DNA from: Maricaulis maris MCS10
GTDB lineage: Bacteria; Pseudomonadota; Alphaproteobacteria; Caulobacterales; Maricaulaceae
Length of the DNA: 64,000 bases
NCBI RefSeq assembly: GCF_000014745.1
Contig: NC_008347.1
Location: 2,868,001-2,932,000 of the forward strand
Direction: 5' to 3'
A program made the translations under genes and the position numbers. Below are positions 7,275 to 52,232 of the stretch, piece by piece. The stretch's first letter is position 1. Each line of letters begins with the position of its first letter. Under the pieces are notes generated by a model, which did not search any database, had not been told where the DNA came from, and worked only from the letters and a program-made list of their open reading frames with translations.

Positions 7275-7290
7275 ATGTTACCCCTAACAT
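7275..7290. promoter_or_regulatory. Entner-Doudoroff operator copy 1 (palindrome upstream of zwf)
   Basis: The sequence is ATGTTACCCCTAACAT: perfect 6-bp arms ATGTTA/TAACAT around a CCCC spacer. An identical 16-mer occurs at 52217-52232, in the promoter region of glk-eda. The arm and spacer layout resembles the operator known for the LacI-family gluconate repressor GntR of E. coli, which is written ATGTTA-N4-TAACAT. It lies 53 bp before the zwf start and 133 bp before the hemN start. Repression by a LacI-family sugar-acid regulator is inferred; no such regulator is encoded in the window. Confidence 0.8.
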
Positions 7291-7423
7291 GTCGAGCTCG
7301 AACGGTCGACCTTGAACTCCACAATCCCCCGCGGGAGGACCCGGCAGCCTGCGCTCTTTGGGCGCATGCCGGTGCAGGCAGGTCTCGGATAATCTCGCAA
7401 ATAAATTGAGGGGACTGGTCCGC

Positions 7424-8749
7424 ATGCCTGACGACGCGCCACGCTTCATTGCCAAATACGCGCTGGAAGCCGTTCCGCGCTACACTTCCTACCCGCCCGC
7501 CACGAAGTTTCACGGCAAGGTCGGTCTGGCGGATTGGCAGCGCTGGATGACGCAGCAAGACAAAAACCCTGCCCTGTCGATCTACGTCCACATCCCGTTC
7601 TGCAAATCCATGTGCTGGTATTGTGGCTGTCACACCACAATCCCGAACGCACATCGACGGGTCGAGCACTATCTGGCCGCGCTCGACATCGACATTCGCA
7701 GGCGAGCAGAGAGCGCCCCGCCGGACGGTCGGGTCTGTCACATTCATTTTGGTGGCGGCTCTCCCGACATGCTGAAGCCGGAAGAATTCCGGGCCGTCAT
7801 GCAGCAGATCAGGGCCAGCTTCAATGTCGCCCCGGACGCGGAAATTGCGGTCGAACTGGACCCTCGGGGGCTGGACTCCGAGCTTTGCCAGGCCATGGCG
7901 CAGACCGGGGTCAACCGTGCCAGCCTGGGCGTCCAGGACATCTCCCACGAGGTCCAGAAGCTGATCCACAGGATCCAGCCCCTCGAGATCGTACAGGCCG
8001 CCGCCGACAAATTGCGGGCGGTCGGCATTTCGGCGATCAATATGGACATGATGTACGGCTTGCCGGCCCAGTCCGTCGCGCGCGTTTGCGAGACGGCGAA
8101 CGCCATCGCTGGAATGGGAGCAGACCGCGTGTCCGTGTTTGGCTACGCCCATGTACCCTGGTTCAAGAAACACCAACGCGCCATCCCCGAAGAGCGTCTG
8201 CCCGGAGCGGCTGAACGGTTCGACCAAATGCTGGCTGCAAACCACACCCTGAGCGAAGCCGGCTATGAGCGGATCGGTTTCGACCATTTCGCTCGCCCCG
8301 CAGACCCGCTCGCCCGAGCCGCCCGTGATGGCTCGCTGCGTCGCAATTTCCAGGGTTATACGACCGACCCTTCGACCATTCTGATCGGACTGGGCGCTTC
8401 GGCGATCAGTGAGTGCCCGCAGGGATATGTGCAAACCGAACCCAACCCCGTGCGCTACGCCAACGCTGTCACGAGCAATGCCGACATGATTGTGCGCGGC
8501 GTCGGGCGATCAATGGCCCAACAGGCCGTCGCCTCGCGTATCGCAAACCTGCTGTGCCAGTTCGAGACCGAGGTTGAGCCAGGCGACCCTGTCGACCTTG
8601 CCAAGGATATGCTTGCTGAAGCCCTGGTGCGAATCGACGACGGCCGGATCACGCTGACCGAAGCCGGGCGCCCCTATGTCCGCAATCTGGCTGCACGCAT
8701 CGATCCGGCGTTCCGGAGCACAACCGAACAGCACAGCGTCGCGGTCTGA
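7424..8749 (+). CDS. hemN: Oxygen-independent coproporphyrinogen III oxidase (radical SAM)
   Basis: HemN decarboxylates coproporphyrinogen III to protoporphyrinogen IX without O2, using S-adenosylmethionine. The 441-residue product has the radical-SAM cluster motif C60-x3-C64-x2-C67 with the extra C69 typical of HemN (IPFCKSMCWYCGC), followed by HFGGGSPDML and DMMYGLP. The length and the C-terminal HemN domain with FARPADPLA agree with true HemN rather than the shorter HemW-like proteins. The start is set at 7424 (MPDDAPRF) behind GAGGGGA; an upstream in-frame start would lack family similarity. No clear FNR/FixK box (TTGAT-N4-ATCAA) was seen upstream, although many alphaproteobacterial hemN genes have one. 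The gene is divergent from zwf. Confidence 0.95.
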   Translation: MPDDAPRFIAKYALEAVPRYTSYPPATKFHGKVGLADWQRWMTQQDKNPALSIYVHIPFCKSMCWYCGCHTTIPNAHRRVEHYLAALDIDIRRRAESAPPDGRVCHIHFGGGSPDMLKPEEFRAVMQQIRASFNVAPDAEIAVELDPRGLDSELCQAMAQTGVNRASLGVQDISHEVQKLIHRIQPLEIVQAAADKLRAVGISAINMDMMYGLPAQSVARVCETANAIAGMGADRVSVFGYAHVPWFKKHQRAIPEERLPGAAERFDQMLAANHTLSEAGYERIGFDHFARPADPLARAARDGSLRRNFQGYTTDPSTILIGLGASAISECPQGYVQTEPNPVRYANAVTSNADMIVRGVGRSMAQQAVASRIANLLCQFETEVEPGDPVDLAKDMLAEALVRIDDGRITLTEAGRPYVRNLAARIDPAFRSTTEQHSVAV

Positions 8750-8821
8750 CGTCACAATAGGGGAGGACAGGTTATCACGCGGGCCTTATAAACCGGGGAT
8801 CGCGTTCCATGGTGACCCGGT

Positions 8822-10537
8822 TTGAAAACCGCCCTTCTGTCAGCTTTCATCCTTGTGTGCAGTCCGGCCGCCTTTGCGGAACCTCTGGCGCAGGTGCAGG
8901 GCGTTCGCGATACCGAACTCCTCGCCGCACTGGTGTCAGCGATCGGTGAGCGCGACACATCAACTGAGGCCCCGGCCACCAGCGCCATGCGCGATGCCCG
9001 AACCGCAGCAGACCGGGCACGGCGGCTGTTGCGGTCGCGTGGGTACTACACCGCCCGGGTCGATACCTATGTCGATGATACGCGCGGTGCCAGCCTGCGA
9101 ATCCTGCCCGGTCCACAATTCACCGTCGGCCGCGTGGACGCGAACACAAATGGCGATGTCGAAGCCCGCGATCATGCGTTGGAGGCTGTCGCCCTGCCTG
9201 TCGGGGCACCGCTATTGGCCCAAACCGTCATCGACGCGGAGGCACGCGCCCTGCGGGCGCTGCAAAGCGAGGGCTGGCCGGATGCCGAACTGCTGGAGCG
9301 GGAAGTCGTCGTTGACCATGCCGGACGCGACGGGCTGATCACCTTTCGCTTCCAGTCCGGACCATTTTCACGCTACGGCGAGGTCAGCCGCGAAACTGCG
9401 GGCTGGGATCCGCAATTCATTGCCCGCATTTCTCCACTTGCCCGGGGCGATGTTGCCAGCCGGGAAGGCATGCTGGCCTATCAGCGACGCCTTGATGATC
9501 TGGCCAGTGTCCGAACGGCACGCGTCGGCCTGGCAGACCCGGTCGCCGGCACCGCTGAACGCGAAATCGAAATTTCGCTCACCGCCGCGGACCGCCACAC
9601 CATCGAGACCGGCCTGAGCTATTCGACCAGCGAAGGCGCCGGGGCGGACATGCGCTGGACCCGCCGCAACATGTTCGGGCGCGACGAGACCCTGACCTTG
9701 TCGACCACATTGGCAACTCTGAACCAATCGGCTTCGGCCCGCCTGGAACGCCCGCATTGGCGCCGCCACGCCCAGACGCTGTTTCTCAATTCCGGCATCA
9801 CACGCGAAACCACAGACGCCTATGACCAGGATGAAATCGAGGCCGGTATCGGTATCAACCGGCGCGACGGTCGGCGGACTTACGGCGCAGGTATCTCGCT
9901 CGACACGTCCCGCGTGACCGATGTCGACGGCGAGCGTGACATCATCACCGCAGCCTTCGACCTGAGCGGTGCCTATGACAGCCGCAATGACCCGCTGGAC
10001 CCGACCGGCGGCGTTCGTCTGTCGCTTCAATTGACCCCGGCCATCACCTTTGGCGACGAAGACGGCCGGTATGTCCGCGTCGATGCACGCGCTGCCGGTT
10101 ATTTCCGGTTGGGTGACAACCTCGTGGCAGCCGGTCGGGCCCGCATCGGTTCAATCCTTGGCACCTCGGTTTCCACCCTGGCCGCCGATCAACGCTTCTT
10201 CGCTGGCGGCGGCGGGTCGGCGCGCGGTTTCGAATACCAGTCGCTCAGCCCTTTCGGCAGTGACGGCGAACCTTTTGGTGGCCTGTCAGTCGTGGAGGTC
10301 AGCACTGAATTGCGCTGGCGGGTCACACCCGAATGGGGCGCCGTCGCATTTGTGGACAATGCGATTGCCTCGGATATCAACGCCCCGGAAATTGGTGATA
10401 TGCGTAGCGCGATTGGTGTCGGCGCGCGTTACTATTTCGACTTTGCACCGGTGCGCATCGACCTGGCTGCGCCACTCGACCGGCGCAGCGGCGAACCCGC
10501 TTTCCAGATTTATTTCAGCCTTGGCCAGGCGTTCTAG
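8822..10537 (+). CDS. tamA: TamA: outer-membrane Omp85-family assembly protein
   Basis: TamA is the outer-membrane barrel of the translocation and assembly module and works with TamB, encoded immediately downstream. The 571-residue product begins with a signal peptide (about residues 1-19, ending SPAAFA). Next come POTRA-like repeats, with the pattern RRLLRSRGYYTARV and ALQSEGWPDAELLEREV, then a C-terminal 16-strand Omp85 barrel with the conserved loop GGGGSARGFEYQSL (equivalent of the VRGY lock) and a C-terminal aromatic ending, YFSLGQAF. The start is taken as TTG at 8822: an in-frame stop lies at 8813-8815 and the next ATG would remove the signal peptide. A GGTGA ribosome site precedes it. 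Confidence 0.9.
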   Translation: MKTALLSAFILVCSPAAFAEPLAQVQGVRDTELLAALVSAIGERDTSTEAPATSAMRDARTAADRARRLLRSRGYYTARVDTYVDDTRGASLRILPGPQFTVGRVDANTNGDVEARDHALEAVALPVGAPLLAQTVIDAEARALRALQSEGWPDAELLEREVVVDHAGRDGLITFRFQSGPFSRYGEVSRETAGWDPQFIARISPLARGDVASREGMLAYQRRLDDLASVRTARVGLADPVAGTAEREIEISLTAADRHTIETGLSYSTSEGAGADMRWTRRNMFGRDETLTLSTTLATLNQSASARLERPHWRRHAQTLFLNSGITRETTDAYDQDEIEAGIGINRRDGRRTYGAGISLDTSRVTDVDGERDIITAAFDLSGAYDSRNDPLDPTGGVRLSLQLTPAITFGDEDGRYVRVDARAAGYFRLGDNLVAAGRARIGSILGTSVSTLAADQRFFAGGGGSARGFEYQSLSPFGSDGEPFGGLSVVEVSTELRWRVTPEWGAVAFVDNAIASDINAPEIGDMRSAIGVGARYYFDFAPVRIDLAAPLDRRSGEPAFQIYFSLGQAF

Positions 10538-10539
10538 GC

Positions 10540-13500
10540 ATGGCTCCAATGGCCGTCATACGTCGCCTTGCGCTCTGGATCGGACTTGGTCTGCTCGTTC
10601 TTGTGGTCCTTGCCGCCGGCCTGCGGCTGGCCGCCGGACAGGCGCCCGGCCGCTGGCTGGTCACCAGCCAGCTGGAGGGACGATATATTCCAGGCGCCGG
10701 CCACCTCTCGGTATCCGGCGTACGTGGCGATCCCTTGTCCCGGCTCCATATCGACCGTTTGACGCTGAGTGATGATGACGGGGTCTGGCTGACCGCCAAT
10801 TCTGTCACACTCGACTGGCAGGCCCGAAGCCTGGCGTCGCGCCCCATCCAGATCAATGAGGCCTTGATAGAACAAGTCTCCATTGCCCGCCGCCCCATTC
10901 TCGAAGACGAACCAGCAGGGTCGGCGAATGACGGTTCAAACACCGGACTGAGACTTCCCGCAGTCAATCTCGACCGTTTCGAACTGTTGCGGCTGGACCT
11001 GAGCGAAGGCGTCGCCGGACCACAGGCCGTGCTGACCGCAACGGCGAGCGCCCGCCTTCGATCCCGGGCCAGCAATCTGACGATCCGGGCCGAACGTCTT
11101 GATGCCCCGGGCGACCGTCTCGTGACGGACCTGCTCGTTGACGCAGAGGGTGTTGCCGGCACCCTGACCGCAACCGGAGAGGCCGGAGGCACGCTGGCGA
11201 ACCTGTTGCGCCTGCCCGACATGAACATCCGCATCGATGGCCGCGTCGATGGTGATCTCGCATCCGGTCACGGCGAACTGGCATTGACCGCCGACAGCAC
11301 GTCGCGGGCCGAGGCGACCCTCGACTGGGGTGTAGATGGGTGGCAGGGCGATGCCACGATCAACGCTGCGTCGTGGGGCCTGGTTCCCGAACCCCTGGCA
11401 TCCGAAATCGAAACGATCCAGCTTGCCGTCGAAGGGCAACGACGGGACGGCTTCACCCTGGATACGGTGTCCCTGGACGCCACCAACAGCCGCCTTGTCT
11501 TGCGGGACGTGACCGAGGCAGTCATTCGGGCCGAATTCGACCTCAGCCCGGCGTTGGTCGCGCGCCTGTCCGGGCAGCAGGTCAATGTGGGTTCGGTCAG
11601 GGGAACAGCTGATCTGGAACGCGGCGACGGCATCGACGTCCACATTCGCCCGGCCATCGAAGATATCCAATTTGCCGGCGCGACCGTCCAGCGGCTCGAC
11701 GGGTCGGTCGGGGTCACATTGCCGGGCGGGCACCCGCACCTGGTGTTGGATATCAATCTGGACGGCGTCCACACCGGTCGGCCCGAAGTTGACCGCCTAG
11801 CCAACGGTCGGGTTCGTATTGTTGGTGAGATTTCCGACCTTGGCCGTGACGGCGGCTGGCAGCTTGCACCAGACTTCACTGCCATGTCGGACGCCCTGAC
11901 CGTCACAGCAAGCGGACACCTTCCACCTGGCGCGGCATGGCCGGTCGGCGACGTCTCGATCAACCTGGCTGACACCTCACGGGTCCATGCCGGCCTTGCC
12001 GGTCCGGCGAGCGGAGACATTTCCATCGCGCCTGACCGTTCGATCGAATTGCGCGTCGACGCCAGCGCTGTGACCTGGCCCGCAACCACCGAAGGCATTC
12101 TTGATGGCATGACCGCGCGGGCCAGCCTCGCGGCGTCGGAGCCCGGATGGACCGTCTCTGCCCTCAACGCCCGGAGCCGTGCGCTCGACCTGACGCTCAG
12201 CGGCAATTACCTGGGCGCGGACGACTGGGACGCTGCCGGTGATCTGGCACTGGACGGCGTCTTGCCGTTCGCCGCGATTGAAATCGATGGCGGCCTGGCG
12301 ACTGCCTTCCGCCTGGTGCGTGACCGCCAGGCCTTGCGCCTTCGCTCTGTGACCTCCTCGCGGCAATTGCAGGCCGGGCCGGTCGAGCTCCACGCACCGC
12401 GCCTGGGCATCAGGGGGCGGCTGGGCGGCATCGTCGATGATGCTGCGACATCCCTGGAATGGGTCTTCACCGCTGATCGGGATCTCGGCGATGTCACGAT
12501 CAACGGAACCGCCCGGCATCATGCCGAAACGACCGAACTTGTCGTCACACAGGGACGTTTCGACGATATCACACTGAGCGGGTCAACCGCTTTGACCGGC
12601 CGCGCACTGACCGTCGCGGTTCAAGCTGACCGCGATCAGCTGATGTCACTGACCGCCGAATTTGCCGGCTCTCTCGACGACCTGCGCGGCGGCCAAATCG
12701 AGGCGGCGCTGACAATGGACGCCCAACGGGTTGGGGAGGCCGATCTCAATGCGGCCAGCCTTACCCTGTCCGGCCCACTGTCCGGCGTCGCCCTCAATGC
12801 ACGCGCCGACGGTCGGATCCGCAGCAATGTGGACCTGTCCGCGACCGGCGAAATTGCCCTGGGTGAAAACGGTGTGTCCATTTCCGTTTCGCCCTCCGGC
12901 AAGTGGGCCGCCCACAACTGGACAACCGTCGAGCCGATCCGTTTCGCCACCAATCCTGATGGCGTGACAGCCTCGGCGGCGATTACGCTGGGCGGCGGCC
13001 GGGTGGATCTCACATTACAGACATCCGGCATCAGTCCGATCGCCAGCCTGGCCATTGAGGACCTGCCCGTCGGCGTGCTCGCCGACATCACGGCCATGCC
13101 GGCGACCCAGGGCATGATATCGGGCACGGCCGACCTGCGTGAACTTGACGGGGTCTGGCGCGGCGAAGCGGAATTCGCCGCCACCGGCCTGCTGGCGAAC
13201 GACCTGCCGGATGTGCCGGCGCTTGACCTGCAAGCCCGCATTTCCCTGCAGGATGATGCCCATTCGACCTTCAATCTGCGCGGTGGCGGCCTCGAAGCGC
13301 GCGGCGAAATCACCCGCGCCGGACCAACCACCGACATTGCCCGCCCACAAGGCGCCCCCGACGCGCCACTGAGCGGCGAGATCGAGGCAGACGGTGAGCT
13401 GATGGCGCTTGCAGCCCTGTTCCTGCCGTCTGACATTCTGCTTGAAAGCGGTCGCATTGACGCCCGTCTGGCCGTGTCCGGGACGGTGGCCGAGCCGCAC

Positions 13501-14628
13501 CTGGATGGCGGCCTCTCGCTACGCGACGGCCGCATCAATGCCACTACCGCCGGCAGTCTGGTCTCCGGCATGGACGTCGATCTCGAACTGAGCGGAACCC
13601 GTTTCAACCTGACCCGCCTGTCGGCCAATGATAATCGCGAAGGCCAGCTGAGTGGCGAAGGTCATGTGGAATTCGGCGCGGATGGCCTGCCACAAGGGGC
13701 CGCCAGCTTCACCTTCCAACGCTTCGTCGCCGTCCGCCGGACAGAGCTGACCGTTCAGGCCAGCGGCGATGTCGACTTCACACTCGATACAGACGGATTG
13801 CTGATCAGCGGGGAAAGCCGGGTCGACCAACTACGGACCCAGCCGACCCTGAACGGGGCGGCTTCGATCCCGCAATTGCAGGTCCTCGAAATCAACCAAC
13901 CCAAGGATTATCGGGCGCTCAACGAGACCCGTATCCCGGTCCGGATCGATTATCGCGTCCAGGCCGACAACGGGCTCTATGTCTCCTCCCGTGCCTTCAC
14001 GTCGGAATGGGGCGTCGACCTGCACATCACCGGCCCGGAAAGCAAACCTTCCCTGATCGGCACGGCGACGCTTGTCGGAGGGTCGGCCTTCGTTTTCAAC
14101 CGTCGCTTCACGCTCGCCGACGGAACCGTCACCTTCGATGGCGCCCCCGATGATGCCCGGGTCGACCTCAGCGCTGTTCACAGCCGGTCGGGGTTTCGGG
14201 CCACAGCTCGCGTCACGGGCTCGGCGCGCGCGCCGACCATCACCCTGACCAGTGACCCCGCCCTTCCCGAGGACGAGATCCTGGCGCGCCTGTTGTTCGA
14301 CCAGTCCGTCAGCCAGCTTGGCGCTTTCGAAGCGGCGCAACTGGCGGCGCAACTGTCCGGGCAGAGCCTGCTCAATGTGGTCGGGCAACTGCGTGACCTC
14401 GCCGGGATCGACCGCCTTGACGTCTCGACCAATGCCGACGGCAACCTGTCGGTGGTCGGTGGTCGACGCTTTGGTGACAATGTCTATGTCGAGGTCGGGA
14501 GCAATGGTGCCTCGGCCATTGACGAGGCCTTGATCGAATGGTCCCTGACGCCGGATCTCAGCATCCTGTCCCGGGTCTCGGCCGACACCAATGCCTCGGT
14601 CGCGATCCGCTGGCGCCGTGATTACTGA
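10540..14628 (+). CDS. tamB: TamB: translocation and assembly module inner-membrane protein (DUF490)
   Basis: TamB is a very long periplasm-spanning beta-taco protein anchored in the inner membrane. It pairs with TamA and, with other AsmA-like proteins, is implicated in phospholipid transport to the outer membrane. The product has 1362 residues with one N-terminal membrane helix (about 8-28, LALWIGLGLLVLVVLAAGL), long repetitive beta-rich sequence, and the conserved C-terminal DUF490/TamB domain, seen as LSVVGGRRFGDNVYVEVGS near the end. The ATG is only two bases after the tamA stop, so the pair is translationally coupled. The size and gene order tamA-tamB are the standard ones for proteobacteria. 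Confidence 0.95.
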   Translation: MAPMAVIRRLALWIGLGLLVLVVLAAGLRLAAGQAPGRWLVTSQLEGRYIPGAGHLSVSGVRGDPLSRLHIDRLTLSDDDGVWLTANSVTLDWQARSLASRPIQINEALIEQVSIARRPILEDEPAGSANDGSNTGLRLPAVNLDRFELLRLDLSEGVAGPQAVLTATASARLRSRASNLTIRAERLDAPGDRLVTDLLVDAEGVAGTLTATGEAGGTLANLLRLPDMNIRIDGRVDGDLASGHGELALTADSTSRAEATLDWGVDGWQGDATINAASWGLVPEPLASEIETIQLAVEGQRRDGFTLDTVSLDATNSRLVLRDVTEAVIRAEFDLSPALVARLSGQQVNVGSVRGTADLERGDGIDVHIRPAIEDIQFAGATVQRLDGSVGVTLPGGHPHLVLDINLDGVHTGRPEVDRLANGRVRIVGEISDLGRDGGWQLAPDFTAMSDALTVTASGHLPPGAAWPVGDVSINLADTSRVHAGLAGPASGDISIAPDRSIELRVDASAVTWPATTEGILDGMTARASLAASEPGWTVSALNARSRALDLTLSGNYLGADDWDAAGDLALDGVLPFAAIEIDGGLATAFRLVRDRQALRLRSVTSSRQLQAGPVELHAPRLGIRGRLGGIVDDAATSLEWVFTADRDLGDVTINGTARHHAETTELVVTQGRFDDITLSGSTALTGRALTVAVQADRDQLMSLTAEFAGSLDDLRGGQIEAALTMDAQRVGEADLNAASLTLSGPLSGVALNARADGRIRSNVDLSATGEIALGENGVSISVSPSGKWAAHNWTTVEPIRFATNPDGVTASAAITLGGGRVDLTLQTSGISPIASLAIEDLPVGVLADITAMPATQGMISGTADLRELDGVWRGEAEFAATGLLANDLPDVPALDLQARISLQDDAHSTFNLRGGGLEARGEITRAGPTTDIARPQGAPDAPLSGEIEADGELMALAALFLPSDILLESGRIDARLAVSGTVAEPHLDGGLSLRDGRINATTAGSLVSGMDVDLELSGTRFNLTRLSANDNREGQLSGEGHVEFGADGLPQGAASFTFQRFVAVRRTELTVQASGDVDFTLDTDGLLISGESRVDQLRTQPTLNGAASIPQLQVLEINQPKDYRALNETRIPVRIDYRVQADNGLYVSSRAFTSEWGVDLHITGPESKPSLIGTATLVGGSAFVFNRRFTLADGTVTFDGAPDDARVDLSAVHSRSGFRATARVTGSARAPTITLTSDPALPEDEILARLLFDQSVSQLGAFEAAQLAAQLSGQSLLNVVGQLRDLAGIDRLDVSTNADGNLSVVGGRRFGDNVYVEVGSNGASAIDEALIEWSLTPDLSILSRVSADTNASVAIRWRRDY

Positions 14629-14720
14629 GGCGGGGCAAGCGCTTGCCACCGGCTGGTACGCAGAGTACGGCTGATGGCAACGGCGTGATCGCGCCGCGAT
14701 CCAGCAAGGGGCCTGCGGGC

Positions 14721-15689: not shown

Positions 15690-15690
15690 C

Positions 15691-44073: not shown

Positions 44074-44104
44074 AGCCGCGCCGGATTGTCCGGCGCGGCT
44101 TTTT
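44074..44104. terminator. Bidirectional intrinsic terminator between thiolase and tesB
   Basis: A perfect 12-bp stem (AGCCGCGCCGGA/TCCGGCGCGGCT) with a 3-nt loop sits 27 bp after the thiolase stop. TTTT follows on the plus strand and AAA precedes it, giving a T-tract on the minus strand too. It serves the plus-strand thiolase and the minus-strand tesB. Confidence 0.9.
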
Positions 44105-44149
44105 GATGGGGCCAACTTCATGGGGCCAATCGTTCGGACTTGCGGCGCC

Positions 44150-45067
44150 CTACTCGTCCCTGAGCCGGATCAGGCCTTCCTGCGCCGTGGAGGCCACCAG
44201 CTTGCCGTCGCGGGTGAAGAGCTGGCCGCGATTGAAGCCGCGGGCGGCACCGGACCAGGGGCTGTCGGTATCGTAGAGCAGCCAGTCACCCATATCGACA
44301 TCGTCATGGAACCAGACCGCGTGATCGAGACTGGCTGACTGCATCTTGCGGGTCATCCAGCTGACACCATGCGGCTGCATGCAGGTGCTCAACAGCGCCA
44401 TGTCAGAGGCAAAGGCAAGAATGGCGCGGTGCATGATCTGGCTGTCGGTCGCCAGATCGGTCGCCCGGATCCAGATCTGCCGCCGCGGCTCCCGCTTGCG
44501 CGGATCGATCGGCGACCAGGGATCGACCGGACGCATCTCGATCGGCCGTGGCCGGGTCATGAAACGGTAGAAGGGCTCGGGGATCTGACCCTTCATCTTG
44601 CGCAGCAGCTCGACCTCGGTCGGCAGTTCGTCGGGCATAGGGACGTCACCCAGGTCAAACTGGTGCGTCAGCCCGGCCTCCGGCTTCTGGAAGGAGGCCG
44701 TCATGTTGAGGATGGGTTTGCCCCGCTGCATGGCGATGACGCGGCGGTTCGAGAAACTGCCGCCATCATAGTCGCGCTCAACGCGGTAGATGATCGGGAA
44801 GTCCTCGTCGCCCGGTCGCATGAAATAGGCGTGCAGCGAGTGGACATGCCGCTCGGGATCAACCGATGCCACGGCAGATTTCAGCGCCTGGGCGATGACC
44901 TGGCCACCAAATACCCGACCGCGACCGCCAGGATTGCGGCGCCCGCGATACAGGTCGACATCAAGCTCTTCGACATCGAGAAGATGGACCAGCCCGGCCG
45001 CCAGCTCGGCCGGGCTGAACACCCGGCGTTCCTTCTTGTTGTCTCCTGACGTATCAGCCTCAGCCAT
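44150..45067 (-). CDS. tesB: Acyl-CoA thioesterase II
   Basis: TesB hydrolyses acyl-CoA to free fatty acid and CoA. The 305-residue product has the two hot-dog domains of TesB: RNPGGRGRVFGGQVIAQALKSAV and HSLHAYFMRPG in the first, ASLDHAVWFHDDVDMGDWLLYD and GFNRGQLFTRDGKLVASTAQEGLIR in the second. Length and end motif match E. coli TesB. It stands alone on the minus strand: a terminator follows, and the proB gene ends 94 bp upstream. It may lower the acyl-CoA pool in the surrounding region. Confidence 0.93.
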   Translation of the reverse strand: MAEADTSGDNKKERRVFSPAELAAGLVHLLDVEELDVDLYRGRRNPGGRGRVFGGQVIAQALKSAVASVDPERHVHSLHAYFMRPGDEDFPIIYRVERDYDGGSFSNRRVIAMQRGKPILNMTASFQKPEAGLTHQFDLGDVPMPDELPTEVELLRKMKGQIPEPFYRFMTRPRPIEMRPVDPWSPIDPRKREPRRQIWIRATDLATDSQIMHRAILAFASDMALLSTCMQPHGVSWMTRKMQSASLDHAVWFHDDVDMGDWLLYDTDSPWSGAARGFNRGQLFTRDGKLVASTAQEGLIRLRDE

Positions 45068-45161
45068 GGCGGCGCCCTCAACTCGATCTTTCGCTCAGCC
45101 CCAATTCTGGACTGCGCACACACAAATTTCCAGCTTCGGGTACGGTCGCCAGCAGATCGGA

Positions 45162-46319
45162 TCAGGAAGCAACAATGCGCAACGACTTGGTCGGCGCATC
45201 CCAGGGCAGATGTTGGGAATCCAGAATGACCATATTGTCGCGATTGACGATTTCCGGTCGCGCATTATAGCCCAGCAACTCCTTGACCGAATGGTCGGTG
45301 TGGCGAGCGAGCATCATGGTCTCGTCGGACGAGAAATTCGTCAGCCCGCGAGCCACTTCGTCGCCGCTCTCCGAATAGATATGCAGCACGTCGCCCTTGG
45401 TGAACCCGCCATGGATTTTCACCACATCCTCGTGACTGACCCCGGTTGCGCTGGTCTTCAGTGCCGCCGCGGCGGCATCCGTAAGCACGAGGCCACCGGC
45501 GCGGTGCAGGCGGTTGGTCAGCCAGACAGCCCAGGACGAGGCCGGGGTCCCCTTGGCAACGCATTTGGTATGCCGACGCTCGCCACTGAGCACAGCAGAA
45601 ACGGGACGGTCGATCGTGCCTTCGGCGATCAGGGTGGTACACCCGGCGTTCTGGGCGAAATTGGCCGCCTGGATCTTGGTCAGCATGCCGCCCGATCCGA
45701 GCGAACTCGTCCCGGATGTGACCTCCAGATACTCGGTCACATCCTCGATCGTGTCGACGAATTGCGCCTCGGGATCTGACGGGTCGCGATCATAGAGCCC
45801 GTCAATACTGGTCAGGATGATGAGATGATCGGCCTGGATCATTTGCGCGACACTCGCAGCAAGGCGGTCATTGTCACCGACCCGGATCTCCTCGGTGGTT
45901 ACCGTATCGTTCTCGTTGACGATCGGCATGATATCGCGTTCGAACAGGCGCTGGATCGTGTTCTTGGTATTGAGGAAGCGTCGGCGCTCTTCCAGATCGT
46001 CCAGCGTCACCAGTATCTGGGCGATATCAAAGCCGTGTTCCTGCGCAACCTGCCTGTAGGCATGGAGCAGGAGCGGCTGACCGCAGGCGGCCGCAGCCTG
46101 CTTGTCCAGCACGCCCGCATCCTCGGGTGAGGTCTTGATCGCATTGAGCCCCAGAGCGACCGCTCCGGATGATGCCAGCACAACATCATGTCCCTGATCC
46201 CGAAGCCGGGCGATATCCGCCAGCAACTCGTTCATGAAGGCATAGCGAAGTGTCAGTCGGCGATCATTGGCCAACAGGCTTGATCCGATCTTGACGACAA
46301 TGCGTTGACGCTGGCTCAC
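45162..46319 (-). CDS. proB: Glutamate 5-kinase
   Basis: ProB phosphorylates glutamate as the first step of proline synthesis and is usually feedback-inhibited by proline. The 385-residue protein has an amino-acid-kinase domain (VVKIGSSLLAND, LASSGAVALGL, VNENDTV, GSGGMLTKIQAA) and a C-terminal PUA domain (about 290-375). The start is GTG at 46319 (MSQRQRIVVK) with AGGAG seven bases upstream. It is divergent from proC across a 321-bp AT-rich interval. The neighbouring proC-proA-putP genes complete a proline block. Confidence 0.95.
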   Translation of the reverse strand: MSQRQRIVVKIGSSLLANDRRLTLRYAFMNELLADIARLRDQGHDVVLASSGAVALGLNAIKTSPEDAGVLDKQAAAACGQPLLLHAYRQVAQEHGFDIAQILVTLDDLEERRRFLNTKNTIQRLFERDIMPIVNENDTVTTEEIRVGDNDRLAASVAQMIQADHLIILTSIDGLYDRDPSDPEAQFVDTIEDVTEYLEVTSGTSSLGSGGMLTKIQAANFAQNAGCTTLIAEGTIDRPVSAVLSGERRHTKCVAKGTPASSWAVWLTNRLHRAGGLVLTDAAAAALKTSATGVSHEDVVKIHGGFTKGDVLHIYSESGDEVARGLTNFSSDETMMLARHTDHSVKELLGYNARPEIVNRDNMVILDSQHLPWDAPTKSLRIVAS

Positions 46320-46640
46320 ACGATTCTCCTGGATAACACGCCAGAACTCATCCCGGCGCCAATATTTCGCGCAAACTATTTAGCATTCGAAATTTTTCAA
46401 CCCCAAAATCTGCCCAAACCCGTGCAAGCGCGCAGGCAGACGACGGGCCATGGCGTAATTTCTTATACGCTACAAGGCGGGGACAGCGGATGCTGCAACC
46501 GCAAATATAATTTGAATTCGAAATTGTTTTTGTTATACACCGCCCAACATCATGCTCGACCTGCCCCGGCGGATCGGGCATTTTCATGTGAGCAGGGCAT
46601 TTCCGGCCGGGAGTGTCACCACGAACGGAGCGGACACGGT
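46320..46640. promoter_or_regulatory. Divergent promoter region of proB and proC
   Basis: A 321-bp interval markedly AT-rich compared with its surroundings. The decamer ATTCGAAATT occurs twice in the same orientation, at 46385-46394 and 46516-46525, 131 bp apart. The two copies flank the middle of the interval, where promoters for the two divergent genes are expected. No regulator of proline genes is encoded in the window. Nothing else gene-like was seen. Confidence 0.45.
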
Positions 46641-47420
46641 ATGGACATTTTGGTGGTGGGATGCGGAAAAATGGGCGGTGCGATGTTGCGCCGCTGGCTC
46701 GATGCCATGCCCGCGCGCTTCACCACAGTGAATCGAAGCGGTCGCGCCCTGCCGCCCGGCACCGAACACGCTACCGGCCCGGACGCCCTCACCGGACGCC
46801 GCTTCGATGCCATCATCATCGCCGTCAAACCGCAACAAATTCCCGACGTCATGCCGGCCTATACCGACCTGCTGGCAGATGGCGGCTGCTATGTCTCGAT
46901 CGCCGCCGGCTTTTCGACGGCCTCGCTGGGAAAGCTGGTCGGGGACCAGCCGGTGATCCGGATCATGCCCAACCTTCCGGCCCTGATCGGTCGCAGCGTC
47001 AACGGCCTGTTCGCCAATCCGACCTGTCAGGACAAGCATCGCGACCTGGCCAATGAGCTGGCCCGGACCACGGGAACTGCGGTTTGGCTGGACGATGAGG
47101 ACGAGCTGGATCGATTGACTGCCATTGCCGGCAGTGGGCCCGGCTATGTCTTCGAGATCGCGCGCAGCTATGTCGCCGCGGCACAGGCTCTCGGCTTCTC
47201 GAAGGAGACGGCGCGGGCGCTGGTGCTGGAAACCATGGGCGGCGCCATAGAAATGGCGACCCGCTCCGACCAGGACGTTGCCGATTTGCGCAACTCCGTG
47301 ATGAGCAAGAACGGCACGACCGAAGCCGGCATCAATGTACTGCGCCGGGACGGTCAGCTCGACGCGTTGCTGCGCGATACGACCCGCGCGGCCTACGACC
47401 GGGCGGTCGAACTTCGCTAA
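46641..47420 (+). CDS. proC: Pyrroline-5-carboxylate reductase
   Basis: ProC reduces 1-pyrroline-5-carboxylate to proline with NAD(P)H. The 259-residue product has the Rossmann motif [14 protein letters not shown] at its start, [31 protein letters not shown] and the family signature [20 protein letters not shown]. The start at 46641 (MDILVVGC) is chosen because the frame upstream has no family similarity and a GGAG lies 12 bases upstream. It is followed 46 bp later by proA, and then putP, on the same strand. Confidence 0.95.
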
Positions 47421-47466
47421 TTGCCCGACCCGCCCTTCTCAACAACACTCCCACCCCAAGGAAACC

Positions 47467-48723
47467 ATGTCAGATCGTATGCAAGCCTATATCGAACAAC
47501 TCGGCCGTCAGGCCCGTGCCGCCTCCCGCGTTCTCGCGACGGCGTCCACGGAGCGCAAGAATGCGGCCCTAATTGCCGCCGCAGCCGCCCTGCGCTTGCG
47601 GGCCAACGACCTGCTCGAGGCCAACCGCATCGATGTTGACGGCGTACGCAAGGCTGGCAAACCCGACGCCTTCATCGATCGCCTGATGCTCGATGGCGCG
47701 CGGATTGAGGGGGTCGCCAGTGCGGTCGAGGCGATCGCCACGCTTCCCGACCCGGTCGGGCGCGTCCTGGCCGAGATCGACCGGCCCAACGGCTTGCGGA
47801 TCGAACGCGTCGCCGTGCCGCTGGGTGTGATCGGCATGATCTATGAGTCGCGCCCGAATGTCGGCGCCGATGCCGGCGCCCTGTGTCTGAAGTCCGGCAA
47901 TGCCGTGATCCTGCGCGGCGGCTCGGAAAGCCTCAACTCGACCCGCATCATTGTCGAATGCATGAAGGAAGGCCTGCGCGAAGCGGATTTGCCGGAAGAC
48001 GCGATCCAGATGATCGACACCGCCAATCGCGACGCCGTCAAACACCTGCTCCAGTGCACGCAATTCGTCGACCTCGTCATACCGCGTGGCGGCAAGGGGC
48101 TGGTGACGCTCGTCCGCGACCAGGCCCGCGTACCGACGCTGCTTCACCTCGATGGCAATTGCCACACCTATGTCCATGCCGGCGCCGATCTCGACAAGGC
48201 CGTCGCCATCATCGAGAACGCCAAGCTGCGCCGGACCGGAATTTGCGGGGCCACGGAAAGCCTGGTGATCGATGAAAGCGTCGCCGCTGACCTGCTGCCG
48301 CGACTGATCGACCGCATGACTGTCTGTGAATTCCGGGGTGACCCGGCTGCCGTGACCATCGACCCCCGCGTCAAACCGGCAGACGATTCGGACTGGGACA
48401 CCGAGTATCTGGATGCCTGCCTGTCGGTGAAGATCGTCGACGGGCTCGAGGCGGGGATCAATCACGTTGCCGCCCATTCGTCCGGCCATACCGATGCCAT
48501 CGTCACCGAAGATGCGGACGCGGCGACCTGCTTCCTGGCCATGATCGACAGTGCGGTCGTGATGCATAATGCCTCGACCCAGTTCTCCGACGGCGGCGAA
48601 TTCGGCATGGGCGCCGAAATCGGCATCGCGACCGGCAAGATGCACGCGCGCGGACCGGTCGGGCTGGAGCAACTGACCTCGTTCAAATACCTGGTTCACG
48701 GTGAGGGTCAGACACGCCCCTGA
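47467..48723 (+). CDS. proA: Gamma-glutamyl phosphate reductase
   Basis: ProA reduces gamma-glutamyl phosphate to glutamate semialdehyde, which cyclises to pyrroline-5-carboxylate. The 418-residue product fits the family: [47 protein letters not shown], and [19 protein letters not shown] with the catalytic cysteine (about residue 260). The start at 47467 (MSDRMQAYI) has AAGGAAACC just upstream. ProB and ProA act as a complex; here proB is encoded on the opposite strand and proA with proC. A putP gene follows after 84 bp. Confidence 0.97.
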
Positions 48724-48807
48724 TCGACGGCCCTGCCACTGGCCTTGAGCCAAACGGCAAATTCCCCAATCTTCCACCTTCCGTTTCGCTGAACCCAAGG
48801 CAAGTCC

Positions 48808-50433
48808 ATGGATATTGAAGCTCTTATCTCGCTGGCACTCTACTTCATCCTGATGATGGCGATCGGGCTCTATGCCTATCGCAAGTCCACGGATGACGTG
48901 TCCGGCTACATGCTGGGCGGACGCCAGCTGCACCCAGCGGTGGCGGCCCTGTCGGCCGGCGCGTCCGACATGTCGGGCTGGATGCTGATGGGCCTGCCGG
49001 GTGCGATCCTGCTGACCGGCATGTCGGAAAGCTGGATTGCCATCGGCCTGATGATCGGCGCCTATTTCAACTACAAGCTCGTGGCCCCGCGGCTGCGCGT
49101 CTATACCGAGGTGGCCGACGACGCGATCACGATCCCGGACTATTTCGAGAAGCGTTTCGCCGACAATTCGCGGCTTCTTCGCGTGATCTCGGCCATCGTC
49201 ATCGTGTTGTTTTTCACCATTTATACGTCAGCCGGCGTGGTTGCGGGCGGCAAGCTGTTCGAGGCCTCCTTCGGTCTCAACTACCAGATCGGCCTGTTCG
49301 TCACCGCCGGAGTGGTCGTGGCCTATACATTGTTCGGTGGTTTCCTCGCGGTCAGCCTGACCGACTTCGTGCAGGGCGTCATCATGTTCCTGGCGCTGGT
49401 ACTGGTGCCGGTGGTGACCATCATGCAGCTGGGCGGTTTCGGCCCCACGATCGACGCGCTGAGCACGTTGAGCGTCGATGTTGGTGGCTGGGACAAACCC
49501 TATCTGTCGATGATCCCGCAAGAGAGCCTCGGCCTCGCGGTCATCGGCATCATTTCGACCATGGCCTGGGGCCTGGGCTATTTCGGCCAGCCGCACATCA
49601 TCGTGCGCTTCATGGCCGTGAAGTCGCTCAAGGACGTCAAGGTCATGCGCCGGATCGGCATGAGCTGGATGCTGATCACCGTGGTCGGCGCCCTGCTGAC
49701 CGGGGCCGCCGGCCTCGCCTATGTGAAGAGCCAGGGCATCCAGACCGCGGACGGGCTCAATGTTGCCCGGGTCGTGGAAGCGCCTGGCGATGCGACCACC
49801 ACGATGGGGGATCTGGAAAACATCGACACAACCGGCGCCTTTGCTGACGGCGATGTGGTGCTCGGCGACCAGGAAACCATCTTCATCCTGCTCTCCCAGG
49901 TCATTTTCCACCCCTATATCGCCGGCTTCCTCCTGGCCGCCATCCTGGCCGCGATCATGAGTACGATCTCGTCCCAGCTCCTGGTCTCATCAAGTTCGCT
50001 GACCGAGGACTTTTACAAGGTCTTCCTGCGACGCGGTGCCAGCCAGAAAGAGCTGGTTCTGGTCGGACGCCTGTCGGTGCTGGCGGTATCGCTGGTGGCG
50101 ATAGGACTGGCCTTCAATCCGGACAGCAACATACTTGGCCTCGTATCCAACGCCTGGGCCGGCTTTGGTGCCGCCTTCGGACCGGTCATCCTGGTCAGCC
50201 TGTTCTGGCGCGGCATGACCCGCCTGGGTGCCATCGCCGGCATGATTGCCGGTGCGGTCACTGTGCTGGTGTGGATTTACGGCCTGCAGCTGTCGGGCGT
50301 TATGTATGAAATCGTGCCAGGCTTCATTGCCTGCCTGGTGACGCTCTACATCGTCTCCAAGGCAACCGCCAAACCGGGACCGGAGGTCACCGACTATTTC
50401 GACGAGATGCACACGCGCGTCAAAGCCGGATAG
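48808..50433 (+). CDS. putP: Sodium/proline symporter
   Basis: PutP imports proline with Na+ (SSS family). The 541-residue product has the usual thirteen-helix profile. Motifs are GASDMSGWMLMGLPGAI (helix 2, sodium and proline contacts), TDFVQGVIMFLALVLVP, and SQLLVSSSSLTEDFYKVFLRRGASQKELVLVGR, which match E. coli PutP closely. A loop at about residues 305-345 (GIQTADGLNV...FADGDVVLGDQET) is longer than in E. coli PutP by about three dozen residues. It follows proA by 84 bp, so uptake and synthesis of proline may share regulation, for example in osmotic stress. Confidence 0.93.
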   Translation: MDIEALISLALYFILMMAIGLYAYRKSTDDVSGYMLGGRQLHPAVAALSAGASDMSGWMLMGLPGAILLTGMSESWIAIGLMIGAYFNYKLVAPRLRVYTEVADDAITIPDYFEKRFADNSRLLRVISAIVIVLFFTIYTSAGVVAGGKLFEASFGLNYQIGLFVTAGVVVAYTLFGGFLAVSLTDFVQGVIMFLALVLVPVVTIMQLGGFGPTIDALSTLSVDVGGWDKPYLSMIPQESLGLAVIGIISTMAWGLGYFGQPHIIVRFMAVKSLKDVKVMRRIGMSWMLITVVGALLTGAAGLAYVKSQGIQTADGLNVARVVEAPGDATTTMGDLENIDTTGAFADGDVVLGDQETIFILLSQVIFHPYIAGFLLAAILAAIMSTISSQLLVSSSSLTEDFYKVFLRRGASQKELVLVGRLSVLAVSLVAIGLAFNPDSNILGLVSNAWAGFGAAFGPVILVSLFWRGMTRLGAIAGMIAGAVTVLVWIYGLQLSGVMYEIVPGFIACLVTLYIVSKATAKPGPEVTDYFDEMHTRVKAG

Positions 50434-50456
50434 TCGCGGTTCCTGCCGGACAAAAG

Positions 50457-50488
50457 AAAGCGGCGGCCCATCGGGTCGCCGCTTTTTT
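50457..50488 (+). terminator. Intrinsic terminator after putP
   Basis: The stem AAAGCGGCGGCCC/GGGTCGCCGCTTT (one G-T mismatch) with a 3-nt loop is followed by a run of T's; it lies 24 bp after the putP stop. It should terminate the proC-proA-putP transcript and stands before the convergent eda gene. Confidence 0.85.
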
Positions 50489-50513
50489 CTTGCCTTGAGA
50501 CAGGGCTGGAGGA

Positions 50514-51143
50514 TCAGGTCTTCATTGCCGCGGCCGCAGCAGCATTCGCCGTGATCGTATCCCAGTCGCCCGCATCGATCATCGCGCCGGTGGCAATCCA
50601 CGACCCGCCGACACAGACAACATTCGGCAGCGCCAGATAGTCCGGCGCCATCTCGCGGGTAATCGATCCGGTCGGGCAGAAGCGGATGTCCGGCAAGGGA
50701 CCGGCGATGGATTTGAGATAAGGGCGACCACCAGCCTGTTCGGCCGGGAAGAATTTCAGGACCTCGAACCCGGCCTCGACCGCGCTCATCGCTTCACCGG
50801 CCGTGGCGACGCCCGGCAGGACCGGAATGCCCGACGCCAGCAGTGCCGGGACAAGCTGTGGCGACAGGCCCGGAGACACCAGGAAATCGGCGCCAGCGGC
50901 CATGCTGTCGGCGACCTGCTCGGGCGTTCGGATGGTGCCCATGCCGATGATCATGTCCGGCTCGGCTGCCTTCATGGCCGACAATACGTCGAGCGCTGCC
51001 GGCGTCCGCATGGTCATTTCCACCACGCTCAGCCCGCCCGCCTTGAGGGCACGGGCCAGCGGGGCGGCCTTGGCGACATCGCTGACGGTCAGCACCGGAA
51101 TGACGCTGGCGGCACGGACGAGAGTTTCAAGCGTGATGGTCAT
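50514..51143 (-). CDS. eda: KDPG aldolase (2-keto-3-deoxy-6-phosphogluconate aldolase)
   Basis: Eda cleaves KDPG to pyruvate and glyceraldehyde 3-phosphate, the last dedicated step of the Entner-Doudoroff pathway. The 209-residue product matches the family: E42 in VVEMTMRTP, the Schiff-base lysine K130 in EVLKFFPAEQAGG, GATDFLVSPG-like GADFLVSPGLSP and GSITREMAPDYLAL. The start at 51143 overlaps the glk stop by 4 bp (ATGA), so it is coupled to glk. Its partner enzyme Edd is 43 kb away at 3152, but both loci share the ATGTTACCCCTAACAT operator. Confidence 0.97.
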   Translation of the reverse strand: MTITLETLVRAASVIPVLTVSDVAKAAPLARALKAGGLSVVEMTMRTPAALDVLSAMKAAEPDMIIGMGTIRTPEQVADSMAAGADFLVSPGLSPQLVPALLASGIPVLPGVATAGEAMSAVEAGFEVLKFFPAEQAGGRPYLKSIAGPLPDIRFCPTGSITREMAPDYLALPNVVCVGGSWIATGAMIDAGDWDTITANAAAAAAMKT

Positions 51144-52120
51144 GAGTGGAGATTGCCCTGTTCTGCCAGTGCCGCCGCGCCGCGCAAGGCCGCGCCGTCA
51201 GACTGGATTAGCCGGATCGGAATATCGGAAACATAGCGCGTCATCGGGCCTCGGCCCAGAAAGCGCGACTTGAAGGCGCTCGCCTCAAGCAGGGTCCGGA
51301 TACGCGGAAGAATGCCGCCGCCCAGATAAATCCCTGCCCGCGCGCCGGTCAGCACGGCCACATCGCCGGCATATCCGCCCAGCGCGGCACAGAAGAATTC
51401 GACCACCCTGGCACCGGTTGACGCCGGATCAGCCAGGGCTTCGCGGGTGATGTCCTCGGGACGGTGGCCAGGCCAGGTATCGCCCTCGATCTGGCACAGG
51501 GCACGATGGATATTGACCAGGCCGCGCCCCGACAGGATGCGCTCCCAGGAGACAAAACCATATTCGCGGGCCAGGACACGGCCGACCTCGATCTCGATAT
51601 CGGTACGCGGCGCAAATCCGGCATGGCCGCCCTCGGTTGCGACGACCTTCACCGAATCTCCGTCCGGCACCAGCAAGCCAAGGCCGAGCCCTGTTCCCGG
51701 TCCCAAAACTGCCACCGGCGTGCCCGCGACCGGTCGCCCGTCCGATATCTCGACTATGTCGACACTTGGTGTGAGCGGTGCGCCGCGCGCCTGGGCCTCG
51801 AAGTCATTGACTGCCATCAAGGTGTCCATGCCCAGCTCACCGCCCAGCTCGTCCGGACGGAAGCTCCAGGTCGCATTGGTCAGCTGCACCCTGCCGGCGC
51901 GGATTGGCGAGGCGACAGCGAAACAGGCCCTGCCCGGCCGATCCCCCTCGCAACTCTCCAGATAGGCCATGGCCGCATCGCGGAGATGTTCGAAATCTTC
52001 ATTCTTCAGTCGGCGCACCTGATCGAGATCAAAGCCGCGCGAGACACTGCCCCGCGCGATGGCGAAACGGGCATTCGTGCCGCCAATATCGGCGACCAGA
52101 TAGCTCGGTTCATTGCTCAT
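51140..52120 (-). CDS. glk: Glucokinase
   Basis: Glk phosphorylates glucose with ATP and so provides glucose 6-phosphate to Zwf. The 326-residue product belongs to the Glk family of ROK/hexokinase-fold kinases, with the phosphate-binding loop VADIGGTNARFAI at about residues 8-20, VLGPGTGLGLGLLVPDG and GGILPRIRTLLEASAFKSRF. The start at 52120 (MSNEPSYLV) is the first ATG; the gene overlaps eda by 4 bp. The palindrome at 52217-52232 lies 96 bp upstream. Glucose is presumably taken up without a PTS, because a free-sugar kinase is present. Confidence 0.96.
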   Translation of the reverse strand: MSNEPSYLVADIGGTNARFAIARGSVSRGFDLDQVRRLKNEDFEHLRDAAMAYLESCEGDRPGRACFAVASPIRAGRVQLTNATWSFRPDELGGELGMDTLMAVNDFEAQARGAPLTPSVDIVEISDGRPVAGTPVAVLGPGTGLGLGLLVPDGDSVKVVATEGGHAGFAPRTDIEIEVGRVLAREYGFVSWERILSGRGLVNIHRALCQIEGDTWPGHRPEDITREALADPASTGARVVEFFCAALGGYAGDVAVLTGARAGIYLGGGILPRIRTLLEASAFKSRFLGRGPMTRYVSDIPIRLIQSDGAALRGAAALAEQGNLHS

Positions 52121-52216
52121 GGCCGGTTAAACCCGCTCCCGGATAGATCAGTCCGTCGGCCATCCGCGTCGAAGGTGCTCGGGAAGGCTCGTCTACAGCC
52201 TGACTCTATACGCCAA

Positions 52217-52232
52217 ATGTTACCCCTAACAT
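52217..52232. promoter_or_regulatory. Entner-Doudoroff operator copy 2 (upstream of glk-eda)
   Basis: An identical copy of ATGTTACCCCTAACAT, as found upstream of zwf at 7275-7290. It lies 96 bp before the glk start and 92 bp before the divergent SDR gene, so it can act on both. A GntR/LacI-type repressor is inferred from its layout. Confidence 0.8.

What the first reader, a model, noticed from the sequence alone, without database searches (positions are those of the whole stretch)
7275..52232. One 16-bp operator links the two separated halves of the Entner-Doudoroff pathway
Seen directly: ATGTTACCCCTAACAT occurs at 7275-7290 (53 bp before zwf-pgl-edd) and, base for base, at 52217-52232 (96 bp before glk-eda), about 45 kb apart. 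An exact 16-mer with symmetric arms twice in 64 kb, both in promoter positions of the same pathway, is very unlikely by chance. Known: the E. coli gluconate repressor GntR (LacI family) binds ATGTTA-N4-TAACAT. Inference: one LacI-type regulator outside the window co-regulates glk, eda, zwf, pgl and edd, and possibly hemN and the SDR gene, which lie divergent from the same sites. Finding pathway genes split in two but tied by an operator is useful for annotation.
Basis: partly seen in the sequence, partly recalled or inferred. Interest (0 to 1): 0.75.

Follow-up and report, generated by a model that had tools for sequence, protein, structure and literature searches.

The report
Operator of a sugar-metabolism master switch
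The repeated 16-letter DNA sign marks the two halves of a split sugar-breakdown pathway in a Maricaulis bacterium, and comparison with its relatives indicates that it is the landing site of one LacI-family protein that also marks sugar-building genes, so it is probably a switch between burning and making sugar.

Summary
In detail: ATGTTACCCCTAACAT lies 53 bp before zwf(-pgl-edd) and 96 bp before glk(-eda), the only exact ATGTTA-N4-TAACAT sites in the 3.37 Mb genome. In Maricaulis the site precedes zwf in 17 of 17 regulator-bearing genomes (16 with at most one mismatch). It precedes glk where glk is split off (9 of 9) and is absent at the edd-glk junction where the genes run together (6 of 6). 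Of 59 sites with at most one mismatch in 19 genomes, 54 precede zwf, pckA, glk, fba, glpX, eda or eno. The likely regulator, a LacI-family protein coded outside the window, has orthologs in 17 of 19 genomes; the two without it lack the sites at all targets tested. It alone of five LacI proteins has the recognition residue that goes with TGTTA. Positions suggest repression of Entner-Doudoroff genes and activation of gluconeogenesis, like PckR and CceR; nothing was tested at the bench. It is not Caulobacter GluR or E. coli GntR. hemN and the SDR gene look like bystanders. Odd: pathway sites have GG/CC centres (27 of 28), gluconeogenic sites CG (44 of 44).

The parts
7275..7290 (-). operator of zwf-pgl-edd (reads ATGTTAGGGGTAACAT towards zwf)
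   Evidence: a site with <=2 mismatches before zwf in 17 of 17 Maricaulis genomes that have the regulator, 16 of them <=1 mismatch
5746..7221 (-). zwf, glucose-6-phosphate dehydrogenase
   Evidence: TIGR00871 568 bits
5034..5837 (-). pgl, 6-phosphogluconolactonase (longest ORF; true start may be later)
   Evidence: TIGR01198 153 bits
3152..5116 (-). edd, phosphogluconate dehydratase (longest ORF; true start may be later)
   Evidence: TIGR01196 982 bits
52217..52232 (-). operator of glk-eda (reads ATGTTAGGGGTAACAT towards glk)
   Evidence: exact site before glk in 9 of 9 split genomes with readable upstream DNA
52205..52210 (-). TATAGA, likely -10 box of glk-eda, 6 bp after the operator
   Evidence: TATA at 5-7 bp after the site in 6 of 9 glk, 7 of 17 zwf, 0 of 2 eda and 0 of 44 fba/pckA/glpX regions of the genus; the zwf promoter of this window is not among the 7
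51140..52120 (-). glk, glucokinase
   Evidence: TIGR00749 252 bits
50514..51143 (-). eda, KDPG aldolase
   Evidence: TIGR01182 235 bits
7424..8749 (+). hemN, divergent neighbour, judged a bystander (start chosen by eye)
   Evidence: TIGR00538 379 bits; beside zwf in 10 of 17 regulator-bearing genomes
52325..53086 (+). SDR oxidoreductase, divergent neighbour, judged a bystander (start chosen by eye)
   Evidence: beside glk in 4 of 9 split genomes

Best explanation
The two 16-mers are operators of one LacI-family central-carbon regulator, coded at C1:328986-330029 (locus L005), outside the window. Most likely it is a two-way switch. Without sugar it sits in the zwf and glk promoters, just upstream of the -10 box, and blocks the Entner-Doudoroff genes. 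From sites further upstream it helps transcription of pckA, fba and probably glpX. When sugar enters, a pathway metabolite (6-phosphogluconate by analogy with CceR) releases it. Shown here: the sites, their conservation, their target genes and the co-occurrence with the regulator. Inferred: the binding, the sign of regulation and the effector.
For: Targets: 54 of 59 sites with <=1 mismatch in 19 Maricaulis genomes precede zwf 16, pckA 15, glk 9, fba 8, glpX 3, eda 2, eno 1; the reversed control pattern gives 28 sites in the same genomes. Of 90 upstream regions, 68 have a site with <=2 mismatches against a mean of 0.18 (max 2) in 50 base shuffles. Site columns are 89-100% conserved, 30-bp flanks 46-65% (sites were picked by match, which favours them). 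Natural experiment: glk has its own exact site when split off (9 of 9), none at the edd-glk junction in a joint run (0 of 6). Regulator: an L005 ortholog (56-100% identity) in 17 of 19 genomes; G005 and G012 lack it and lack sites at all targets tested. In G005 zwf and glk are not found either. In G001, G004, G008 and G015 the ortholog lies 13-19 kb from the glk or eda site. Recognition helix: among 80 LacI homologs, methionine at the second specificity position goes with TGNTA palindromes upstream of the gene (13 of 62; TGNCA 0 of 62), lysine with TGNCA (7 of 18; TGNTA 0 of 18). L005 is the only one of five LacI proteins of this genome with methionine there. In Emcibacter a LacI with IM lies divergent to zwf with GTGTTAACGTTAACAT between. 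Position: 41-56 bp before zwf (16 of 17) and 34-97 before glk, but 84-143 before fba and 213-270 before pckA.
Against: No binding or expression data. L005 has no conserved site before its own gene. The centres differ between the two target groups, so two proteins are possible. At up to 2 mismatches the genome shows no excess of sites (15 against 20 in the control). The genomes share ancestry, so counts are not independent, and absence of L005 rests on two genomes. With a looser rule (<=1 mismatch) 2 of 62 methionine-type proteins also show TGACA. In G015 a lysine-type LacI gene lies directly before the glk operator. The pckA site overlaps the apparent start of a divergent DUF2891 gene in 10 genomes and the glpX site lies in a small ORF in most. 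In G011 zwf has only a 2-mismatch site, and a TGACA-type palindrome closer in. The zwf promoter of this window has no TATA at the usual spacing, and the consensus promoter scan found nothing at either site. Ravcheev et al. list fba among genes that PckR represses, against activation of fba. Outside the genus exact sites are hardly more frequent than the control (16 against 13 of 118 genomes).
Confidence: 0.77

Rival explanations
1. Two proteins: L005 binds only the CG-centred pckA/fba/glpX sites, and another regulator with the same half-site binds the GG/CC-centred zwf, glk and eda sites.
For: The centre dinucleotide splits the targets cleanly: GG/CC in 27 of 28 zwf/glk/eda sites, CG in 44 of 44 fba/pckA/glpX sites with <=3 mismatches. 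LacI operators that are even palindromes usually have a central CG: 1173 TFs against 49 with another and 29 with a degenerate centre (PMC4052901, passage).
Against: Half-sites are alike in both groups, including the variant ATGGTA in zwf of G001/G004/G006 and in fba; zwf and pckA sites are both missing in G012; zwf in G029, of another genus of the family, has ATGTTAGCGCTAACAT with a CG centre.
Confidence: 0.12
2. Another LacI protein of the genome, of the lysine type (L006 VK, L007 IK, L008 KK), is the regulator, as GluR is proposed to be in Caulobacter.
For: A lysine-type LacI gene abuts the glk operator in G015, and one lies about 8 kb from zwf in G012 and 12 kb in G011.
Against: Lysine-type proteins go with TGNCA sites (7 of 18, none TGNTA); G012 has such a protein and no ATGTTA site at the targets tested; six genomes with the sites show only one or two LacI-like matches to L005, their L005 ortholog included.
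Confidence: 0.04
3. A regulator of another family (RpiR, DeoR, GntR-type) uses the palindrome.
For: The GG/CC centre is unusual for LacI. Other families were not profiled across the genus.
Against: Site-regulator co-occurrence and the recognition-helix correlation point to LacI.
Confidence: 0.05
4. The repeat is chance or a mobile repeat.
For: 21 repeated 16-mer pairs occur in the window.
Against: Conservation in the genus with diverged flanks; flanks of the zwf and glk sites in the same genome share only 2-10 of 20 bases.
Confidence: 0.01

Closest known systems
PckR of Rhizobiales (LacI family)
   Same: LacI protein, mostly not clustered with its targets, represses zwf-pgl-edd and induces pckA and fbaB in Sinorhizobium (PMC11406972 and PMC4052901, passages); same core target set.
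   Different: PMC4052901 predicts fba as repressed.
CceR (GapR; that both names mean RSP_1663 is recalled) of Rhodobacteraceae (LacI family)
   Same: Switch between glycolysis and gluconeogenesis; its loss in Paracoccus raises Zwf, Pgl, Edd, Eda and Glk and lowers PckA and Fba (PMC11323563, passages); senses 6-phosphogluconate (PMC4419725, PMC5507952, passages).
   Different: Broader regulon; a 20-bp palindrome said to differ from PckR's, not compared with ours; the protein sequence was not compared. The primary paper (PMC4323418) is not held.
GluR of Caulobacter (CC2053)
   Same: LacI protein predicted to control zwf-pgl-edd-glk (PMC4052901); proteins at that position are 51-53% identical to L005.
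   Different: Gene directly downstream of its operon, ATGACAACGTTGTCAT before zwf, recognition residues IK, and a separate branch of the tree.
GntR of E. coli (LacI family)
   Different: L005 fails the GntR equivalog model; the targets found here are central-carbon genes.

Membership tests
LacI-family transcription factors | LacI-type helix-turn-helix domain | tested here: met
   PF00356 73.7 bits, cut-off 27; in the genome 77.8 bits
LacI-family transcription factors | sugar-binding effector domain | tested here: met
   PF13377 133.8 bits, PF00532 87.2 bits
LacI-family transcription factors | even palindromic operator with central CG | tested here: inconclusive
   CG centre in 44 of 44 fba/pckA/glpX sites but in 1 of 28 zwf/glk/eda sites
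GluR (Caulobacter) | gene next to zwf-pgl-edd-glk | tested here: not met
   L005 at C1:328986-330029, zwf at C1:2873749-2875221
GluR (Caulobacter) | operator with TGACA half-sites | tested here: not met
   ATGACAACGTTGTCAT before zwf in L197, L200, L203 against ATGTTA here
GluR (Caulobacter) | same branch of the LacI tree | tested here: not met
   Maricaulis clade (SH-aLRT 99) inside the methionine-type group (97); GluR outside (quick tree, 65 rows, three long-branch rows, one of them junk)
PckR / CceR type switch | same operator class before Entner-Doudoroff and gluconeogenic genes | tested here: met
   zwf, glk, eda, pckA, fba, glpX
PckR / CceR type switch | orthology to PckR or CceR proteins | not tested
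   their sequences were not fetched; by eye none of the 80 kept hits is titled as a Rhizobiales or Rhodobacterales genus, a weak hint against
PckR / CceR type switch | release by 6-phosphogluconate (CceR) | not testable with these tools
   needs binding assays
PckR / CceR type switch | repression of glycolytic and activation of gluconeogenic genes | not testable with these tools
   positions agree with it; no expression data
GntR (gluconate repressor) | passes the GntR equivalog model | tested here: not met
   NF011563 90.4 bits, cut-off 433; NF052440 161.8, cut-off 400

The most novel reading that the evidence does not exclude
One LacI protein reads two operator grades that differ in the central base step, and the step goes with the sign of control: GG/CC where the site lies inside the promoter of an Entner-Doudoroff gene, CG where it lies further upstream of a gluconeogenic gene. 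Because the LacI hinge helix wedges into a central CG step, the altered centre may make the promoter-embedded sites bend or release differently, so that one signal frees the sugar-burning genes first. This regulator would also be a fourth, non-orthologous LacI solution for the same switch in Alphaproteobacteria, after PckR, CceR/GapR and GluR.
Probability: 0.25. Interest if true: 0.7.

Novelty: new member of a known kind. Interest (0 to 1): 0.5.

Why it matters
It proposes a regulator and a regulon for central carbon metabolism in Maricaulis, for which two full-text searches of the open-licence library showed no paper (six listed papers seen as listing only, none). It gives a natural experiment on how control survives when an operon is split: each half carries the same site. 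Next to GluR in Caulobacter it suggests that different LacI branches with different recognition helices have taken over the same pathway in related bacteria. The GG/CC-versus-CG rule is directly testable with one protein and a few oligonucleotides.

Tried and rejected
hemN and SDR as co-targets: rejected because the operator stays when they are not neighbours. Autoregulation of L005: no conserved site before the gene in 17 orthologs; a 2-mismatch match in G000 lies inside an upstream ORF, and G009 and G010 share a 3-mismatch match. Further sites at 2 mismatches in the own genome: no excess over control (15 against 20); of the eleven 2-mismatch sites only the one before glpX was followed into relatives, the contexts of the others were read by eye. 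The motif as a family-wide mark: rejected at exact-match level, 16 of 118 genomes outside the genus against 13 with control hits. Of those 16 genomes one locus each was compared with the pathway proteins and one hit zwf (G029); ORFs were looked at in 7 of the 16 loci, and one site precedes a LacI gene (G045). Coding constraint at pckA: rejected as the sole cause, since G009, G010, G011, G013 and G014 keep the site with no DUF2891 match in the stretch read, and G005 and G012 have the gene without the site. Coding constraint at glpX: not excluded. Promoter copy as origin of the glk site: no flank similarity left. Orthology of L005 with PckR/CceR: not tested. Structure prediction: not used.
Full report
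What was checked. The window is C1:2868001-2932000 of a single-contig genome of 3,368,780 bases. The genus is Maricaulis: the contig of genome G007 that carries an ortholog of the candidate regulator has the same length (63,038) as a named Maricaulis contig whose match to the regulator alignment is 91% identical. The genome has two exact ATGTTA-N4-TAACAT sites, four with up to one mismatch and fifteen with up to two; the reversed control pattern has 0, 2 and 20. So the strict motif is rare and informative, while the loose motif is noise in a single genome.

What the sites precede. The two one-mismatch sites lie before pckA (a fragment scoring 781 bits against a cut-off of 806) and between a pgk-like gene and fba, upstream of fba (class I aldolase, 510 bits, cut-off 250). 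In 19 genomes of the genus there are 59 sites with at most one mismatch (control 28). By my reading of all contexts, 54 precede central-carbon genes: zwf 16, pckA 15, glk 9, fba 8, glpX 3, eda 2, eno 1. The other five lie by or in unrelated or unidentified ORFs, judged by eye. Upstream regions of zwf, glk, eda, fba, pckA and glpX were then compared gene by gene. 68 of 90 regions hold a site with at most two mismatches, against a mean of 0.18 and a maximum of 2 in 50 base shuffles. By gene: zwf 17 of 18, glk 9 of 15, eda 2 of 2, fba 13 of 17, pckA 15 of 19, glpX 12 of 19. Two pckA and two glpX regions hold weaker, three-mismatch sites and are not in the 68. Sites are conserved at 89-100% per column and their 30-bp flanks at 46-65%; the sites were picked by their match, which raises their figure.

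The split pathway. In G009, G010, G011, G012, G013 and G014 zwf, pgl, edd, glk and eda lie in one run, and glk has no site of its own (0 of 6). In the nine genomes where glk-eda lies apart and its upstream DNA is readable, it has the exact site (9 of 9). In G008 and G018 no glk was found, and eda carries a one-mismatch site 33 bp before its start (2 of 2). G016's glk upstream is cut by a contig end. A genome of another genus (G029) also has the whole set in one run with ATGTTAGCGCTAACAT before zwf, and Caulobacter loci have zwf-pgl-edd-glk in one run. The single run is therefore probably the older state, and the operator was kept or re-created at both halves after the split.

The neighbours. 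hemN lies within 1.5 kb of zwf in 10 of the 17 regulator-bearing genomes, and the SDR gene beside glk in 4 of the 9 split genomes. The operator is present in the others as well, so it goes with zwf and glk. I find no support for hemN or SDR as targets.

The regulator. The genome has five LacI-family proteins. One, L005 (C1:328986-330029), has an ortholog at 56-100% identity in 17 of 19 Maricaulis genomes. G005 has no match and G012 only a 42% paralog. These two genomes have no site at any target tested (G005: fba, pckA, glpX; G012: zwf, glk, pckA, glpX). G005 is telling: fba and pckA are 87% identical to ours, but zwf and glk are not found, the regulator is missing, and so are the sites at pckA, fba and glpX. 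Only zwf and glk were searched for; edd and eda in G005 were not. In G001, G004, G008 and G015 the L005 ortholog lies 13-19 kb from the glk or eda site on the same contig, a loose linkage that the own genome does not show.

Recognition helix. Camas et al. 2010 (PMC2978694; outline and two of three parts of section 5 read) report that two residues of the LacI recognition helix set two bases of the operator, the second residue most strongly. I tested this on the 80 LacI homologs kept. Proteins with methionine at the second position have TGNTA-N4-TANCA within 450 bp upstream in 13 of 62 cases and TGNCA-N4-TGNCA in 0 of 62; those with lysine have 0 of 18 and 7 of 18. With exact half-sites and one mismatch allowed the counts are TGTTA 7 and TGACA 2 of 62, and 0 and 8 of 18. 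The 80 are not independent. L005 reads AM; the other four proteins of the genome read VK, IK, KK and VS. Single cases agree: Caulobacter GluR (IK) with ATGACAACGTTGTCAT before zwf, a Robiginitomaculum LacI (MK) with TTGACAGCGCTGTCAA, an Emcibacter LacI (IM) divergent to zwf with GTGTTAACGTTAACAT between the two, and the G045 LacI (PM) with ATGTTAGCCGTAACAT before its own gene.

Not GluR. L005 is 51-53% identical to the three Caulobacter proteins that lie directly downstream of zwf-pgl-edd-glk. In a 65-protein tree the Maricaulis proteins form one clade (SH-aLRT 99) within the methionine-type group (97), and GluR falls outside (quick tree, short search, three long-branch rows, one of them junk). 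Ravcheev et al. 2014 (PMC4052901; passages) describe PckR, GapR and GluR as non-orthologous regulators of the same genes in three lineages; the word Maricaulis does not occur in its main text. Searches for Maricaulis with LacI (six papers listed) and with Entner-Doudoroff (none) showed no paper on this (listings only). L005 looks like another such regulator; whether it is orthologous to PckR or CceR was not tested.

How it probably works. In the zwf and glk promoters the site lies close to the gene (41-56 bp for 16 of 17 zwf, 34-97 for glk), and TATA follows at 6 bp in 7 of 17 and 6 of 9, against 0 of 2 eda and 0 of 44 fba, pckA and glpX regions. The glk promoter of this window is one of the 6; its zwf promoter is not one of the 7. 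This is a blocking position. In the fba and pckA regions the site is 84-143 and 213-270 bp from the start, and conserved promoter-like blocks lie about 60-68 bp further downstream (read by eye). This fits activation from upstream. PckR and CceR are reported to do this: repression of zwf-pgl-edd and activation of pckA and fba (PMC11406972 and PMC11323563, passages); Ravcheev et al., however, predict fba as repressed by PckR. The sign of regulation here is inferred from position and analogy.

The odd centre. LacI operators normally have CG in the middle, into which the hinge helix inserts (PMC2978694). Here 44 of 44 fba, pckA and glpX sites have CG, but zwf, glk and eda sites have GG or CC in 27 of 28; the exception is the weak zwf site of G011 (sites with up to three mismatches). 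In the nine split genomes the GGGG centre is the same at zwf and glk in nine, and the whole 16-mer in six, while the flanks share only 2-10 of 20 bases. So the centre seems to be under selection. It may tune affinity or bending, or it may betray a second protein. This is the most interesting open point.

Weak spots. The genomes share ancestry. The glpX site lies inside a small ORF in most genomes, so its conservation may be partly coding; it is absent in G005, G008, G011, G012 and G018. The pckA site overlaps the apparent start of a DUF2891 gene in 10 genomes, but five genomes keep the site with no DUF2891 match nearby and two have the gene without the site. fba lacks the site in G005, G011, G013 and G014. 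No binding or expression data exist here.

Noticed in passing
L149 / G018 C33:6526 and L131 / G008 C1:77503: In two Maricaulis genomes without a detectable glk (one of them 69% complete), eda carries its own operator 33 bp before the start.
   Followed up: yes
G005 (unnamed Maricaulis): A 99% complete genome without zwf and glk matches also has no match to L005 at E<=0.001 and no operator at fba, pckA or glpX; edd and eda were not searched.
   Followed up: partly
L050 / G011 C5, 50 bp before zwf: A TGACAACGTTATCA palindrome of the lysine type lies before zwf, with a VK-type LacI gene about 12 kb away; possibly a change of regulator inside the genus.
   Followed up: partly
L152 / G015 C6:44123-45189: An IK-type LacI gene ends 46 bp before the glk operator.
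   Followed up: partly
L134 / G011 C6:24427: ATGTTAACGGAAACAT lies upstream of enolase (PF00113, PF03952) in one genome; possibly a further target.
   Followed up: no
L016 / G000 C1:1660227: The glpX site lies between glpX and a divergent phaC (PHB synthase), inside a small lipoprotein-like ORF; a link to polymer storage is conceivable.
   Followed up: no
window 7275-7290 and 52217-52232: The GGGG centre is kept at both loci although an arms-only palindrome would not need it.
   Followed up: partly
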